Origin: Flavimaricola sp. | Lineage (GTDB): Bacteria; Pseudomonadota; Alphaproteobacteria; Rhodobacterales; Rhodobacteraceae | Direction: 5' to 3' | Assembly (NCBI GenBank): GCA_029255105.1 | Contig: JAQWWH010000016.1 | Location: forward strand, 1 to 64,000 | Length of the DNA stretch: 64,000 bases | Shown: one piece after another, positions 3,945-21,052 of the stretch | Position numbering within the stretch: position 1 is the stretch's first letter | How the letters are laid out: every line of letters begins with the position of its first letter | Notes under the pieces: model-generated | The model's input: the letters and a program-made list of their open reading frames with translations, nothing else | Database searches by the model: none | What the model was told of the DNA's origin: nothing | Program-made: the position numbers and the translations under genes

Positions 3945-5465
3945 ATGAGTGCTTTCAAACCGGTTGTCCTGTGTATTCTTGATGGCTGGGGCTTGCGGGC
4001 TGAAATCGAGGCGAATGCGCCGGTGCTGGCGGATACCCCCACCTTCGACCGGATTATGGCGACCTGTCCCAATGCCCGGCTGATCACACATGGTCCCGAT
4101 GTTGGTCTGCCGAGCGGCCAGATGGGCAATTCCGAGGTTGGCCATACCAATATCGGTGCGGGCCGTGTGGTGGCCATGGACCTGGGCCAGATTGATCTGG
4201 CGATCGAGGATGGATCTTTTGCCCGGTCGCCCGCGATTTTGACATTTGTGGAGGCGCTGAAGAAGAGCGGCGGCACCGCGCACCTGATGGGCGTCATCTC
4301 GGATGGCGGTGTCCACGGTCATATCGACCATGTTGTTGCAGCGGCGGATGCCATTACGGCGCTGGGCGTGCCTGTGGTCATCCATGCCATCACCGATGGT
4401 CGCGATGTGGCGCCGACGTCCGCCAAATCCTTCATCGATGATCTTCAGTCCAGGCTACCCGAGGGCGCGACGATTGCAACAGTGATCGGCCGCTACTTTG
4501 CTTTGGACCGCGACAACAGGTGGGACCGGGTGCAGACCGCCTATTATGCGATGGTCCTTGGCCAAGGCGGTCAGGCAGCGACTGCCGCCGCGGCGGTTCA
4601 GGCCGCAACCGATGGTGGCACGACGGACGAGTTCATTCCTGCCACGGTCATTGGCGACTACCCGGGTATGCAACCGGCTGACGGCCTGTTTTGCCTCAAC
4701 TTTCGGGCCGATCGGTCCCGCGAGATCCTTGCCGCTGTCGCTAACCCTGACTTTGATGGCTTTGATAGAGGGCCCGCCCCGACATTGGCCGCCCGGCTGG
4801 GGATGGTTGAGTATTCGGTGGATCACAAGGCATGGTATGCGGCCGTATTTCCCAAGCGCGAGATCGTGAATACGATCGGCGAATGGGTGGCCAAGCACCG
4901 CCTGCGCCAGTTTCGTCTGGCCGAGACCGAAAAGTATCCCCATGTCACCTTCTTTCTGAACGGCGGCAAGGAAGCTGCGGAGGTGGGAGAGGATCGCAAG
5001 ATGCCGAAATCCCCCAAGGTCGCCACCTATGATCTTCAGCCCGAGATGTCCTCTGTCGAGGTGACCGATGCCTTTGTCGGGGCCATCGAGGCTGGCTACG
5101 ACCTGATCGTGACGAACTATGCCAACCCGGACATGGTCGGCCATACCGGTGATCTGGCCGCAGCGATGAAGGCCTGCGAAGCCGTTGATCGCGGTCTGGC
5201 GCGTGTTGTCACAGCCCTTGAGGCGGCCGGGGGGGCGATGATCGTGACGGCGGATCATGGCAATTGCGAGGTCATGGTGGACCCGGTGACCGGTGGTCCG
5301 CATACCGCCCATACCACCAATCCCGTCCCGGTCGCACTGGTTGGTGGGCCGGAGGGTGTCACCCTGCGCGATGGTCGCCTTGCTGATCTTGCCCCGACGC
5401 TGCTTGACCTGATGGGCCTCGAGTTGCCGCCCGAGATGACCGGGCGGAGCCTGATCGTCCGGTGA
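3945..5465 (+). CDS. gpmI: 2,3-bisphosphoglycerate-independent phosphoglycerate mutase
   Basis: A 506-residue cytosolic Mn-dependent glycolytic enzyme converting 3-phosphoglycerate and 2-phosphoglycerate. Seen: LCILDGWG at the N-terminus (metal aspartate), GNSEVGHTNIGAGR near residue 60 (phosphoserine nucleophile), GRDVAPTSA, IGRYFALDRDNRWDR, FRADRSREI, and C-terminal NYANPDMVGHTG and VTADHGN metal ligands. The ATG at 3945 is preferred over the ATG at 3936 because the AAGGA at 3931-3935 abuts the latter but sits at normal distance from the former. The gene ends in TGATG overlap with the EnvC-like gene. Confidence 0.97.
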   Translation: MSAFKPVVLCILDGWGLRAEIEANAPVLADTPTFDRIMATCPNARLITHGPDVGLPSGQMGNSEVGHTNIGAGRVVAMDLGQIDLAIEDGSFARSPAILTFVEALKKSGGTAHLMGVISDGGVHGHIDHVVAAADAITALGVPVVIHAITDGRDVAPTSAKSFIDDLQSRLPEGATIATVIGRYFALDRDNRWDRVQTAYYAMVLGQGGQAATAAAAVQAATDGGTTDEFIPATVIGDYPGMQPADGLFCLNFRADRSREILAAVANPDFDGFDRGPAPTLAARLGMVEYSVDHKAWYAAVFPKREIVNTIGEWVAKHRLRQFRLAETEKYPHVTFFLNGGKEAAEVGEDRKMPKSPKVATYDLQPEMSSVEVTDAFVGAIEAGYDLIVTNYANPDMVGHTGDLAAAMKACEAVDRGLARVVTALEAAGGAMIVTADHGNCEVMVDPVTGGPHTAHTTNPVPVALVGGPEGVTLRDGRLADLAPTLLDLMGLELPPEMTGRSLIVR

Positions 5466-16927: not shown

Positions 16928-18079
16928 TCAGGCGAAGTAATCGCGCAAGATCCGGCTGTAGATGGCCTTGAGTTGGTGGATCTGGTCGATGGCGACCCTT
17001 TCGTCGACCTGATGCATCGTCTTGCCCACCAGCCCGAACTCAACAACCGGGCAGTGATCCTTCACGAAGCGGGCATCCGAGGTGCCGCCCGATGTGGACA
17101 GGACCGGCTTGACGCCGGTTTCCGCCTCGACCGCCCTGCCTATCAGGTCGGACAGGTCCCCGGGCGGTGTCACGAAGCTTTCGCCCGAGACCTTGACCCG
17201 CATGTCGATACTGACGCCGAAGGCGCTGGCGGCGTCGTCGACCTCATTTTGCATCCAGTCGATCAGGGCGCTGCTGGTGTGATGATCATTGAACCGGATG
17301 TTGACCGTGCTGCGGCATTGGGCGGGGACAACATTGGTGGCCGGGTTGCCGGTGTCGATGGTCACGATGGCAAGGGACGAGGGGTCGAAATGGTCCGAGC
17401 CGGTGTCAAGCTGGCGCGAGGCAAGCCGGTCCATCAGACGCGCCATGGCTGGCAAGGGATTGACGTAGAGCGACGGGTAGGCCGAATGCCCCTGCACCCC
17501 GGTGACAGTAAAAAAGGCATTGAGCGACCCGCGCCGCCCGATCTTCATCGCCTCGCCCATGGTGGTGGGGCATGTGGGTTCCCCGACAAGGCAGACGGAC
17601 ATCGCCTCGCCCGCTTTGGCCATCCAGTCGAGCAGGGCGGTGGTCCCATGTAGGGCGTCGCCCTCTTCGTCGCCGGTAATGGCCAGGATCACGGCCCCGT
17701 CGGGGGGCGTGTCCCGGACAAAGTCGATGGCGGCCGCGGCAAAGGCCGCCACCCCGGATTTCATGTCGGTCGCGCCGCGCCCATAGAGATACCCGTCTTT
17801 GATTTCGGCCCCGAAGGGCGCGACGCTCCAGTCGTCTGGATTGCCCAGCGGCACTACGTCCGTATGCCCGTTGAAGCCAAAACTGCGATTGGCCCCCTGC
17901 CGCCCCCAGCGGGCAAAGAGATTGGCGATCCCTTCGCGGTCGACCCTTGTGCAGGTAAAACCGGCCGCCTCGAGCGCCTCTTGCAGGACCCCGAGGGCCC
18001 CACCTTCGACAGGCGTGATGGACGGGCATTGCACGAGGGCGGCCGTGAGGGCAACGGGATCGGTGGGAGAGTGGGTCAT
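16928..18079 (-). CDS. dapE: Succinyl-diaminopimelate desuccinylase
   Basis: A 383-residue M20 metallopeptidase-fold enzyme that hydrolyses N-succinyl-LL-diaminopimelate, giving LL-DAP for lysine and peptidoglycan. Seen: [13 protein letters not shown], the metal motifs [11 protein letters not shown] and [12 protein letters not shown], the catalytic Glu in [17 protein letters not shown], and C-terminal [11 protein letters not shown]. The ATG at 18079 is the family start, with AAGGA upstream; the frame stays open to 18370 without homology. The acyl-transferase dapD is 3.3 kb away on the same strand, separated by two opposite-strand Hint genes and one small gene. Confidence 0.96.
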
Positions 18080-18216
18080 TGCGGCGGTTCCTTTTGCCTT
18101 TGAGGTAGCTGTGGGACGGCAGGGATGCAATCGCCACTGTTGCGATGAGGTGACACGGGGCGGCTGTTCCGGGTGGTGCGGGCCAAATACCGGTCGAGAA
18201 ATCAAAATAACACAGT

Positions 18217-18268
18217 ACCTTAGGCAAAACAAAACGACCCGAGGCAGGGTAAACGCAAGACCTAAGGT
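18217..18268. promoter_or_regulatory. Separated inverted repeat upstream of the Hint operon
   Basis: ACCTTAGG (18217-18224) and CCTAAGGT (18261-18268) are perfect inverted copies 44 bases apart, about four helical turns, in the dapE/Hint divergent gap. A tandem 7-mer TCTGGTA occurs at 18292-18305. These could be paired binding sites for a regulator of the Hint genes or dapE; nothing else supports this. Confidence 0.3.
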
Positions 18269-18361
18269 GCAACAAAGCAGTCTGCACCAAATCTGGTATC
18301 TGGTATCGGGCACGCCCGGACCGGCGATTGCATTTTGGCCTGGGCGAAAGCGGGGCACATC

Positions 18362-19942
18362 ATGGTTCAAGGCGTCGAACTTACCTACACCAATGCATCG
18401 GCAATGCAGATGGCTCAGACGATTTTCGGCAACGGGGTGCAGGTCGTCAGTGCCAGCTACTCAGGATCAAACTATTCGTCTGCCGTCTACTCGAACGGGA
18501 ATGCCGTTTCACCCAACGTCGTTCCGGGCGACACCGGGGTCATCCTATCGACGGGTCGCGCCTCTGACTTTACCAACCAGGGTGGTGGTTCGAACGATTC
18601 TACGTCGACATCGACGAATACGGGCGGCCAGAACAACAACCCGGATTTCAACGCGATCGCGGGAACCTCGACCTACGATGCGTCCTACTTGGACATGACA
18701 TTCATCCCCACCGGGGATGTCATGACCATTCAGTTCGTGTTCTCGTCGGAGGAGTATCCCGAATACTCCAACTCGATCTACAACGATGTCGTCGGTGTCT
18801 GGGTGAATGGCGAGTTGGTGCCACTGTCGGTCACCGACAGTGCAGCTTCGGTGACCGAGATCAACCAGACGGATAACGTCAACCTGTTCAACAACAACAC
18901 GGCTGATCAGTTCAACACCGAGATGGACGGATTTACCGTCACCATGACCTTGACCATTCCGGTTACATCGGGGGCCGAGAACACCATCAGGATCGGTATC
19001 GCCGACACCTCTGACAGCAGCTACGACTCGAACCTGCTGATTGGCGGCAATTCCTTGCAAACCGTCCTGGTGGCCCAGGACGACGCCATGACGGTCATGG
19101 AGGGGCAAACCAAAGTCATCGACGTTCTGGCAAACGATGTGAACGTGACGGGCGGCACCCTTGTGGTCACGCACATCAACGGGCAGCCCGTGTCGGCGGG
19201 GGATACGATCACCCTTCTCACGGGGCAGGACGTCACACTAAACGCTGATGGGACCCTGACGATTGTCACGGATTCGGACAATGACAAGATCTCGTTCACC
19301 TACGGTGTGGAAAGCAAGGACGGCAGCGGCAACGTTCTTGAGAACGACGTAGGCTTTGTCACCGTCGATACGGTCCCCTGCTTTGTCGCAGGGACCCGGA
19401 TCACGACGCCCCAGGGCGAAGTCGCGGTCGAGACGTTGCGCCCGGGCGATCTGGTCCTGACGAAGGATGACGGTTTTCAGCCCCTGCGTTGGAGTGGGGA
19501 GCGCCAGGTCAGGGCCGAGGGTAAGCTGGCCCCGATCCGCATCCTGGCAAATACGTTTGGGCGCCACGGGCAGTTGATGGTCTCACCGCTGCATCGGGTT
19601 TTGGTCTCCGGCAGCCAGGCCGAGCTTCTTTTTGGTGAGTCTGAGGTGCTAGTGGCCGTCCGGGATCTTGTGAACGACTCAAGCATTCGGCCCGTTGAGG
19701 GTGGCTATGTCACCTACGTTCATTTGATGTTTGACCAGCATCAGGTGGTCTTTGCAGAAGGCCTAGGTACCGAAAGCTTCCTACCCGGCCCGCAAACAAA
19801 GTCCCTGTTCGAGAGGGACGCGATCGAGGAAATTTGCTCGATCTTTCCCGAGCTCGATCCTGAGACGGGCGAGGGCTATGGTCCGGCGGCCCGCCGCATA
19901 TTGCGCCGCTATGAGGCGCAGTTGTTGGTCAAGGCGGCCTAA
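18362..19942 (+). CDS. Hint-domain protein with choice-of-anchor-L-like N-terminus
   Basis: A 526-residue protein without a classical signal peptide. The N-terminal part (about 1-225) resembles choice-of-anchor-L domains: [62 protein letters not shown]/cadherin-like segment follows (about 230-335, [21 protein letters not shown]). The C-terminal Hint (hedgehog/intein) module starts at [15 protein letters not shown] with its nucleophile Cys, then [19 protein letters not shown] and a SPLHR His motif. Hint domains can self-cleave, so processing is possible. The ATG at 18362 is favoured over a TTG at 18335. The next gene starts 3 bases downstream. Confidence 0.85.
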
Positions 19943-19945
19943 CCG

Positions 19946-21052
19946 GTGACAGGCCTGCCCCTCAAATGGATCGCGCTGCGCGACTGGTTGTCCGAGCAAG
20001 GTCATCTGTTCAGGCCGGCCGACGCCGCAGCCCAACCCAACCCCGCGCTGCCCTTGCAACAGGGCACCGTCCTGATCGAATTCCACCACGAACCGACAAA
20101 GTCCCCGAAGAACATTGTCAGGTATAGCCGTAGGGACCCTTCTCCGGCGGTGCTGACCCTCCGGCTTGATCCCGATGGGACCTTGGCCTTGCTGCGGCGT
20201 CAGGGCGCGCGGGACGCGCTTTATGCCCTATCCCTTCCCCAGTTGTTGTCGGGGGAAGGGGCGCAGGTGCAATATGGTTGGGACCTGTCGCGCAACACCG
20301 GATTTCTGGCGGTCAGCCTGCCCTTTCGGGGTATTACCCGCATCATCGAATTGCCGGGTGCCCTACCATTGGAGCATAGGGATATCGCGGGGTTGGCCGG
20401 GGCCGCCTTCCAAGGGGGGCCGGGACTGGAGCGGATTGCGATTGCCGAGGGTTTGGCACCGGTCGGACCGATGCCCTCATTACCGGGAAATGGATTTGTC
20501 CCGACACCGGGCGGTCTGGTCCGGCTGGACGCACTGACACCCGGGATGCGGATCATCGCAGCCGACGGTGAACCGGCCGAGGTGACCTGGGCCGGGCACG
20601 TCCATTTGCCGGCCGGGGGCCTCAATGCCCCGTGCCTATTGCGTGCCCCCTACTTTGGCCTGAACGGCGATCTCATCGTCAGTGCTGGCGCGGTGATGCG
20701 TCTGCAGGGCGCCGAAGTGGAGTATCTGTTTGGACGCCCCGATGTGTCAGTCGTCGTGCGGGACCTTGTCGATGACACCCGAATCTTGCCGGTTTCGGCC
20801 ATGCATGAACTGGCAAATCCCATGGTGCGGCCGTTTCACCAGGTCCTACTGAACAGGCGGGTTCCCATCGTCCTGTCCGGCGCGGTGTTCGAAACTTTGG
20901 ACACCTCAACCCTTCAGACCAACCCTGTCCTTTGGAAGTGGTCCGTTCTGAACGCCCTTGAACCGGCAGTGTTGCCCCAAGAAGGGGCCGTCCATCCGCC
21001 TATTTTACGAGACTATGAAGCGCTTAGTCTGCGTCAGATGCGGGCAGCCTAG
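19946..21052 (+). CDS. Degenerate Hint-domain protein
   Basis: A 368-residue protein starting at GTG 19946, three bases after the preceding Hint gene, so probably co-transcribed. The N-terminal half (about 30-150; GTVLIEFHHEP, AVLTLRLDPDGTLALLRR) looks like a lectin/LamG-type beta sandwich. The C-terminal half aligns with the Hint module next door (LTPGMRIIAADGEPAEVTWAG, VSVVVRDLVDDTRILPV). However, the PCFVAGTR start is replaced by GNGFVPTPGG, losing the Cys, and the SPLHR motif by SAGAV, losing the His. Self-cleavage is therefore unlikely. It may be a structural partner or an eroding copy. Confidence 0.75.
   Translation: MTGLPLKWIALRDWLSEQGHLFRPADAAAQPNPALPLQQGTVLIEFHHEPTKSPKNIVRYSRRDPSPAVLTLRLDPDGTLALLRRQGARDALYALSLPQLLSGEGAQVQYGWDLSRNTGFLAVSLPFRGITRIIELPGALPLEHRDIAGLAGAAFQGGPGLERIAIAEGLAPVGPMPSLPGNGFVPTPGGLVRLDALTPGMRIIAADGEPAEVTWAGHVHLPAGGLNAPCLLRAPYFGLNGDLIVSAGAVMRLQGAEVEYLFGRPDVSVVVRDLVDDTRILPVSAMHELANPMVRPFHQVLLNRRVPIVLSGAVFETLDTSTLQTNPVLWKWSVLNALEPAVLPQEGAVHPPILRDYEALSLRQMRAA

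What the first reader, a model, noticed from the sequence alone, without database searches (positions are those of the whole stretch)
18362..21052. Tandem Hint proteins: one with intact catalytic residues, one apparently dead
The first gene keeps the Hint start PCFVAGTR and the SPLHR His motif. The second, three bases downstream, aligns with it through [16 protein letters not shown] and [16 protein letters not shown] but has GNGFVPTPGG and SAGAV in those two places. A co-transcribed active/inactive pair, each with a different sensor-like N-terminal domain (choice-of-anchor-L versus lectin-like), suggests a two-component surface system or a decoy/regulator. This is inference; the residue losses are observed.
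Basis: partly seen in the sequence, partly recalled or inferred. Interest (0 to 1): 0.7.

Follow-up and report, generated by a model that had tools for sequence, protein, structure and literature searches.

The report
Dead self-cutting domain beside live one
Many bacteria of one marine family keep, at one fixed chromosomal spot, a lectin-like protein whose self-cutting (Hint) domain has lost its cutting residues, usually right behind a sister protein whose Hint domain looks intact, which points to an old, maintained pseudo-enzyme and not a decaying gene.

Summary
Gene A (18362-19942) is choice-of-anchor-L + Ig + Hint_2; gene B (19946-21052) is a jelly-roll, lectin-like domain + degenerate Hint_2. 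In 92 distinct A proteins Cys1 and the block-B His are invariant. In 127 distinct B proteins Cys1 survives in 3 and that His in 13 (Gln in 105); 124 lack a Cys/Ser1 + His pair. B keeps the Hint fold with Ser178 at the Cys1 place, is under purifying selection and lies beside dapE across the family.

The 'two-component' reading is only partly supported. Of 80 named A loci, 75 have a B-profile frame just behind A. But about 66 of 183 B-bearing family genomes lack a full A; the solo Bs examined lie at the same locus and are equally dead, and A presence changes at least 20 times on the B tree.

Most likely B is a pseudo-Hint lectin whose Hint is kept as a non-cleaving structural or export module, while A self-cleaves. 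The mechanism is inferred. My literature searches found no description. New variant of a known kind.

The parts
18362..19942 (+). gene A: choice-of-anchor-L + Big_9 Ig + intact Hint_2 protein, 526 aa, pI 4.1
   Evidence: AlphaFold model pLDDT 83.9, pTM 0.65
18407..19057 (+). choice-of-anchor-L domain of A (residues 16-232)
   Evidence: NCBIfam NF038133, 160 bits; MAM module is the first plausible Foldseek match, 3.4e-6
19070..19333 (+). Big_9 Ig-like domain of A (residues 237-324)
   Evidence: Pfam PF17963, 28.5 bits; matches split Ig-like domains of RTX adhesins at Z about 11
19376..19789 (+). Hint_2 domain of A (residues 339-476)
   Evidence: 175 bits; BIL domain 2lwy Z 14.5 over residues 337-472
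19379..19381 (+). Cys340, predicted nucleophile (Cys1)
   Evidence: invariant in 92 of 92 distinct A proteins; aligned with intein residue 1
19592..19594 (+). His411, block-B His (SPxH)
   Evidence: 92 of 92
19790..19939 (+). C-terminal tail of A after the Hint core
   Evidence: tail motif in 70 of 92 A proteins against 2% in shuffles
19943..19945 (+). three-base gap between the A stop and the B start codon
   Evidence: 55 of 82 A-B pairs lie between a 4-base overlap and a 10-base gap
19946..21052 (+). gene B: pseudo-Hint protein, 368 aa
   Evidence: AlphaFold model pLDDT 92.0, pTM 0.90
19955..20467 (+). N-terminal jelly-roll (CBM40/LamG-type, lectin-like) domain of B, residues 4-174
   Evidence: Foldseek and VIA matches to sialidase CBM40/lectin domains, Z 11-12, and LamG/LNS domains; no Pfam match
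20468..20896 (+). degenerate Hint domain of B, residues 175-317
   Evidence: Hint_2 50.7 bits; BIL 2lwy Z 13.0, hedgehog 1at0 Z 10.9
20477..20479 (+). Ser178 at the Cys1 position of B
   Evidence: in 127 B proteins: Gly 41, Thr 32, Ser 28, Ala 12, Trp 9, Cys 3, Leu 1, Arg 1
20690..20692 (+). Ala249 at the block-B His position of B
   Evidence: Gln in 105, His in 13 of 127
20897..21049 (+). C-terminal tail of B, shared with A
   Evidence: tail motif in 106 of 127 B proteins

Best explanation
B is a pseudo-autoprocessing protein. A jelly-roll, lectin-like domain is packed on a Hint fold that long ago lost self-cleavage and has since been kept as a non-cleaving structural or export/anchoring module together with its C-terminal tail. 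A, translated just ahead of it in most members, is the live counterpart: an acidic adhesin-like protein whose Hint is predicted to make an N-S acyl shift at Cys340 and so release its N-terminal part or pass it to an acceptor. B therefore stays whole, while A is cut. The pair is made together where both exist, but B has a function that does not need A. Shown: residue states, fold match, selection, gene order, presence and absence. Inferred: cleavage by A, lack of cleavage by B, export, ligand binding.
For: Intact residues in A, lost in B. Fold kept: B model pLDDT 92.0, pTM 0.90, BIL/intein/hedgehog matches Z 11-13 over residues 175-317. Loss is old and stable: on a 124-row B tree C/noC needs 1 change and H/noH 4. 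The His is replaced by one residue, Gln, in 105 of 127. Selection: dN/dS of B 0.048-0.215 in 10 non-identical close pairs, like A (0.053-0.212). B persists without A at the same locus. Shared C-terminal tail motif in 70 of 92 A and 106 of 127 B. The two-domain B model has pTM 0.90, while A has 0.65, as expected if the B halves form one unit and the A halves are loosely joined (my reading of pTM). Two other Hint_2 proteins of the same genome carry RTX repeats before a C-terminal Hint, as in type I secretion substrates, and A and B show no hydrophobic N-terminal stretch. Mutation of the block-B His generally gives inactive precursor or blocked cleavage in inteins (passage of PMC7765530).
Against: No biochemistry. 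Ser stands at position 1 in the window's B and in 28 of 127 Bs, and Ser1 can be an intein nucleophile; one intein works without the block-B His (passage of PMC7765530). The strong co-occurrence of A and B (117 of 144 A genomes have B; odds ratio 12, not corrected for kinship) hints at a joint function that this explanation does not need. Export was not tested; no secretion genes lie in the pair.
Confidence: 0.5

Rival explanations
1. B is a dedicated pseudo-enzyme partner of A: its dead Hint binds A's Hint and controls, times or directs its cleavage.
For: Tight, mostly overlapping or nearly touching gene pair (55 of 82 between -4 and +10 bases); strong co-occurrence; the homologous fold would fit a heterodimer.
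Against: About 66 of 183 B genomes lack A. Solo B keeps the same residues. 5 of 80 named A loci have no B frame. No excess of A-B over B-dapE distance correlation.
Confidence: 0.2
2. B acts in trans on any of the several live Hint_2 proteins of the cell, not on A alone (a general Hint partner or acceptor).
For: The own genome has 12 Hint_2 matches, so live Hints remain where A is missing; B survives loss of A.
Against: No direct evidence; counts of live Hint_2 proteins in A-less genomes were not made.
Confidence: 0.15
3. B still processes itself by other chemistry, with Ser1 or Thr1 as nucleophile or with another residue.
For: Ser or Thr at position 1 in 60 of 127 Bs; the window's B has Ser178; the third A-invariant His (460) is kept in 92 of 127; three Bs keep Cys1 and the block-B His (L056, L114, L199).
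Against: Position 1 is Gly, Ala, Trp, Leu or Arg in 64 of 127. The block-B His is gone in 114 of 127. No Cys column of the B Hint reaches more than 21 of 127. The window's B has lost all four positions.
Confidence: 0.1
4. B is a decaying duplicate without a function.
For: Catalytic residues lost; six of the 75 named B-profile frames are short or split (L131, L138, L151, L154, L168, L178), which may be decay or assembly error.
Against: dN/dS 0.05-0.22, open frames across the family, fold and locus kept.
Confidence: 0.05

Closest known systems
Hint_2 domain proteins (Pfam PF13403) of Rhodobacteraceae
   Same: Both proteins match the family above its cut-off; C-terminal position and, in most, the tail motif.
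   Different: B lacks Cys1 and the block-B His that all A proteins keep, and has a lectin-like domain seen in no other Hint_2 hit (the other listed hits start at query residue 123 or later).
Bacterial intein-like (BIL) domains, type B
   Same: Nearest solved fold (2lwy, itself a Clostridium BIL); A has Cys1 and block-B His but shows ESFLPG where inteins have His-Asn, like type B, which cleaves without splicing (passage of PMC4031507).
   Different: B has lost the N-terminal chemistry; no BIL protein or activity was compared here beyond structure and profile.
Hedgehog C-terminal autoprocessing domain
   Same: Fold match at Z 10.9 (1at0) for B; C-terminal Hint followed by a short extra region.
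   Different: No evidence of sterol or any adduct; B lacks the catalytic Cys.
CBM40 / LamG lectin domains (sialidase lectin domains)
   Same: Predicted jelly-roll fold of B residues 4-174 at Z 11-12; weak profile match to a CBM40, E 0.03.
   Different: No Pfam match; ligand residues not compared; solved relatives are parts of other proteins.
Degraded DnaB intein of Arthrobacter (pseudogene) and other dead inteins
   Same: Hint fold without the block-B His.
   Different: Known from a review passage only (PMC7765530); there a single pseudogene, here a conserved family.

Membership tests
Hint_2 (PF13403) | profile score above the curated cut-off | tested here: met
   A 175 bits, B 50.7 bits, cut-off 28.4
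Hint_2 as an autoprocessing enzyme (gene A) | Cys1 and block-B His present | tested here: met
   92 of 92 distinct A proteins have both
Hint_2 as an autoprocessing enzyme (gene A) | self-cleavage | not testable with these tools
   needs purified protein
Hint_2 as an autoprocessing enzyme (gene B) | Cys/Ser1 together with block-B His | tested here: not met
   absent in 124 of 127 Bs and in the window's B
Hint superfamily fold (gene B) | Hint fold | tested here: met
   predicted model, BIL 2lwy Z 13.0, rmsd 2.2, 118 aligned; 6riy Z 12.0; 1at0 Z 10.9
BIL type B (gene A) | no C-terminal His-Asn motif | tested here: met
   by eye: ESFLPG at residues 471-476, where the intein matches end
choice-of-anchor L (gene A) | NF038133 above cut-off | tested here: met
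   160 bits, cut-off 27
CBM40 / LamG (gene B N-terminus) | Pfam profile match | tested here: not met
   only Hint_2 reported for B at E up to 1
CBM40 / LamG (gene B N-terminus) | jelly-roll fold | tested here: met
   predicted model, Z 11-12 to CBM40-type lectin domains
CBM40 / LamG (gene B N-terminus) | glycan binding | not testable with these tools
   binding assay needed
type I secretion substrate (A and B) | export without N-terminal signal peptide | tested here: inconclusive
   no hydrophobic N-terminal stretch, A pI 4.1, B pI 6.3; no RTX repeats in A or B

The most novel reading that the evidence does not exclude
The dead Hint of B works in trans on the thioester made by live Hints: B is the docking partner and acceptor, so that A's adhesin part (or that of other live Hint_2 proteins) is joined to the lectin-bearing B, giving a two-part surface complex made by an enzyme/pseudo-enzyme Hint couple.
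Probability: 0.08. Interest if true: 0.88.

Novelty: new variant of a known kind. Interest (0 to 1): 0.58.

Why it matters
Hint domains are known as self-cutting or self-splicing modules; dead ones are known here only as decayed inteins from a review passage. A Hint family that lost catalysis long ago, swapped the catalytic His for Gln in most members, and is still under selection at one syntenic locus across a bacterial family would be a pseudo-enzyme branch of the superfamily. It makes a plain question testable: what is a Hint fold good for once it cannot cut? It also offers a natural live/dead pair for dissecting what PF13403 domains do in Rhodobacteraceae, where they are numerous (12 matches in this genome) and reported as over-represented in fast-responding marine members (passages of PMC12487129).

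Tried and rejected
Decay or pseudogene: rejected on dN/dS and open frames. Frame or reading error: rejected, since B is an intact ORF with relatives in many genera. Mobile element or plasmid gene: no plasmid match by tblastn at E 1e-5, and the locus is syntenic between rnr/dapE and dapD. An alternative conserved Cys in B (class 3-like chemistry): no Cys column above 21 of 127. Excess A-B coevolution: partial r(A,B given dapE) 0.337, 0 of 2000 permutations as high, but r(B,dapE given A) 0.377 and r(A,dapE given B) 0.243, so nothing beyond shared descent at one locus is shown.

Weak or failed steps. In one search the dapE query was translated out of frame; its hits are still at the dapE place, and repeats the test with the right frame on 40 other loci. 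The Hint tree (quick) has three outgroup rows (L009-L011) taken from the wrong strand and did not show B as one clade; I draw nothing from it on B's origin. The B tree is a quick, unrooted LG+G4 tree, so loss and gain of A cannot be told apart on it. The presence table uses E-value limits I chose by eye (B best E up to about 1e-45, A up to about 1e-180): 149 strong and 34 weaker B genomes, the weaker ones not fetched; A includes paralogues on the dapD side, and some 'B only' genomes keep A fragments (L201, L059) or more distant choice-of-anchor-L proteins. Place lists are capped at 150 rows. Foldseek's whole-model rankings for A and B mix domains, and low-TM rows were ignored. Pfam, NCBIfam and PDB profile searches gave no name for B's N-terminal domain. 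PADLOC and PHROGs were not searched.

Literature: searches listed no paper on a paired or inactive Hint_2 in Rhodobacteraceae. I saw passages (not whole texts) of PMC12487129, PMC7664689, PMC7765530, PMC4031507, PMC2953401 and PMC3933643, and listings only of the rest. The library holds open-licence papers only.

Full report
What is there. Gene A (18362-19942) and gene B (19946-21052) lie head to tail with three bases between them. A has a choice-of-anchor-L domain, a Big_9 Ig domain and a Hint_2 domain matching the full profile. B has an N-terminal part without a Pfam match and a Hint_2 match that begins only at profile position 9. The own genome has 12 Hint_2 matches, and B is the weakest.

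Residues. I collected A and B relatives from 18 stretches of unnamed family genomes and 80 named loci found with the A alignment, then 40 more loci where B had no listed A beside it. After removal of identical sequences there are 92 A, 14 A-paralogue and 127 B proteins. Cys1: A 92 of 92, B 3 of 127 (Gly 41, Thr 32, Ser 28, Ala 12, Trp 9, Leu 1, Arg 1). Block-B His: A 92 of 92, B 13 of 127, with Gln in 105. His454: A 91 of 92, B 20 of 127 (Gln 85). His460: A 91 of 92, B 92 of 127. No B keeps Cys1 without the block-B His, while 10 keep that His without Cys1, so the Cys was probably lost first (inference). The three Bs with both (L056, L114, L199) group with L047, which has lost both (support 99 for the four). 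In the window's B the four positions are Ser178, Ala249, Gln299 and Arg305.

Fold. The AlphaFold model of B (63-row alignment) has mean pLDDT 92.0 and pTM 0.90. VIA alignment of the 1000 best Foldseek chains gives, for residues 175-317, the Clostridium BIL domain 2lwy (Z 13.0, rmsd 2.2, 118 aligned), class 3 inteins (6riy Z 12.0, with residue 178 facing intein residue 1) and hedgehog 1at0 (Z 10.9); for residues 4-174 it gives CBM40-type lectin domains of sialidases (Z 11-12). A profile search against PDB sequences gives the gp41-1 intein (E 0.00056) and 2lwy (E 0.0022) from profile position 176-178 on, and a CBM40 at E 0.03. A's model is weaker (pLDDT 83.9, pTM 0.65); its Hint matches 2lwy at Z 14.5 with residue 340 facing intein residue 1.

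Selection. In 10 non-identical close pairs dN/dS is 0.048-0.215 for B, 0.053-0.212 for A and 0.030-0.162 for dapE (Nei-Gojobori; dS is near saturation in some pairs; an eleventh pair, L177/L049, is one genome twice).

Gene order. Of 80 named A loci, 75 have a B-profile frame just behind A on the same strand; 71 of these score over 200 bits and six are short or split; five have none (L111, L123, L129, L132, L159). Of 82 A-B pairs, 55 lie between a 4-base overlap and a 10-base gap, and 17 have the 4-base overlap. In the 17 B-bearing stretches, dapE-like sequence lies beside the pair in 17 and rnr in 16 (dapE query out of frame, see Tried and rejected). In 40 further loci dapE is next to B and divergent in 39; L202 ends at a contig end.

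Distribution. A survey of 394 family genomes with the B and A profiles gives, at limits chosen by eye, both 117, B only 66, A only 27, neither 184 (Fisher odds ratio 12, not corrected for kinship). Of 150 listed B hits in 149 genomes, 85 have a listed A within 600 bases upstream on the same strand and 65 do not; both lists are capped. In 190 genomes of the class three match the B profile at E 1e-20, all of the window's family. On a 124-row B tree presence of A beside B needs 29 changes, at least 20 forced by well supported branches, while Cys/no Cys needs 1 and His/no His 4. The dead residues are the same in paired and solo B (block-B Gln in 68 of 85 paired and 38 of 43 solo rows).

Reading. 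B is an old pseudo-Hint that is maintained with or without A. The simplest account is a lectin-like protein in which the Hint fold and tail serve as a non-cleaving module, beside a live, self-cleaving adhesin-like protein A. A shared tail motif in 70 of 92 A and 106 of 127 B proteins (2% in shuffles) and Hint domains behind RTX repeats in two other proteins of the genome fit an export or anchoring role of the module, which remains inference. In Ruegeria pomeroyi an exoproteome study found no peptides from the predicted intein region of a secreted RTX protein and proposed splicing (passage of PMC2953401), so processing of such domains in exported roseobacter proteins is plausible. A dedicated A-B partnership is not excluded, but B's independence of A speaks against it as the main role.

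Known or new. Fold and family are known; a conserved, catalytically dead Hint_2 family, mostly encoded behind a live one, was not found described in searches. I rate it a new variant of a known kind.

Noticed in passing
L009:1360-2169 (-), L010:1489-1962 (-), L011:1495-2073 (-): Three more Hint_2 proteins of the same genome appear, by eye, to lack Cys1 and the block-B His, so 4 of 12 Hint_2 matches in this genome may be dead.
   Followed up: partly
L198, L202, L209, L210, L213; also L108, L116, L117, L119, L120, L147, L153, L169, L176, L180: A second choice-of-anchor-L + Hint protein (A paralogue) lies farther along the same locus, on the dapD side of B; in the 14 paralogue sequences aligned (some from other loci of the set) Cys1 and the block-B His are kept.
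   Followed up: partly
L056:7115-8224, L114:7427-8560, L199 (B at 5384): Three B proteins of one clade keep Cys1 and the block-B His and may still be active: a natural test of the ancestral state.
   Followed up: no
L003:1-1878, L004:1-2055: Two Hint_2 proteins of the own genome have RTX calcium-binding repeats before a C-terminal intact-looking Hint.
   Followed up: no
window 18071-18361: A/B and dapE are divergent and share the upstream stretch; whether they share a regulator was not examined.
   Followed up: no
L131, L138, L151, L154, L168, L178: B-profile frames that are short or split behind an intact A: either recent decay of B or assembly errors.
   Followed up: no
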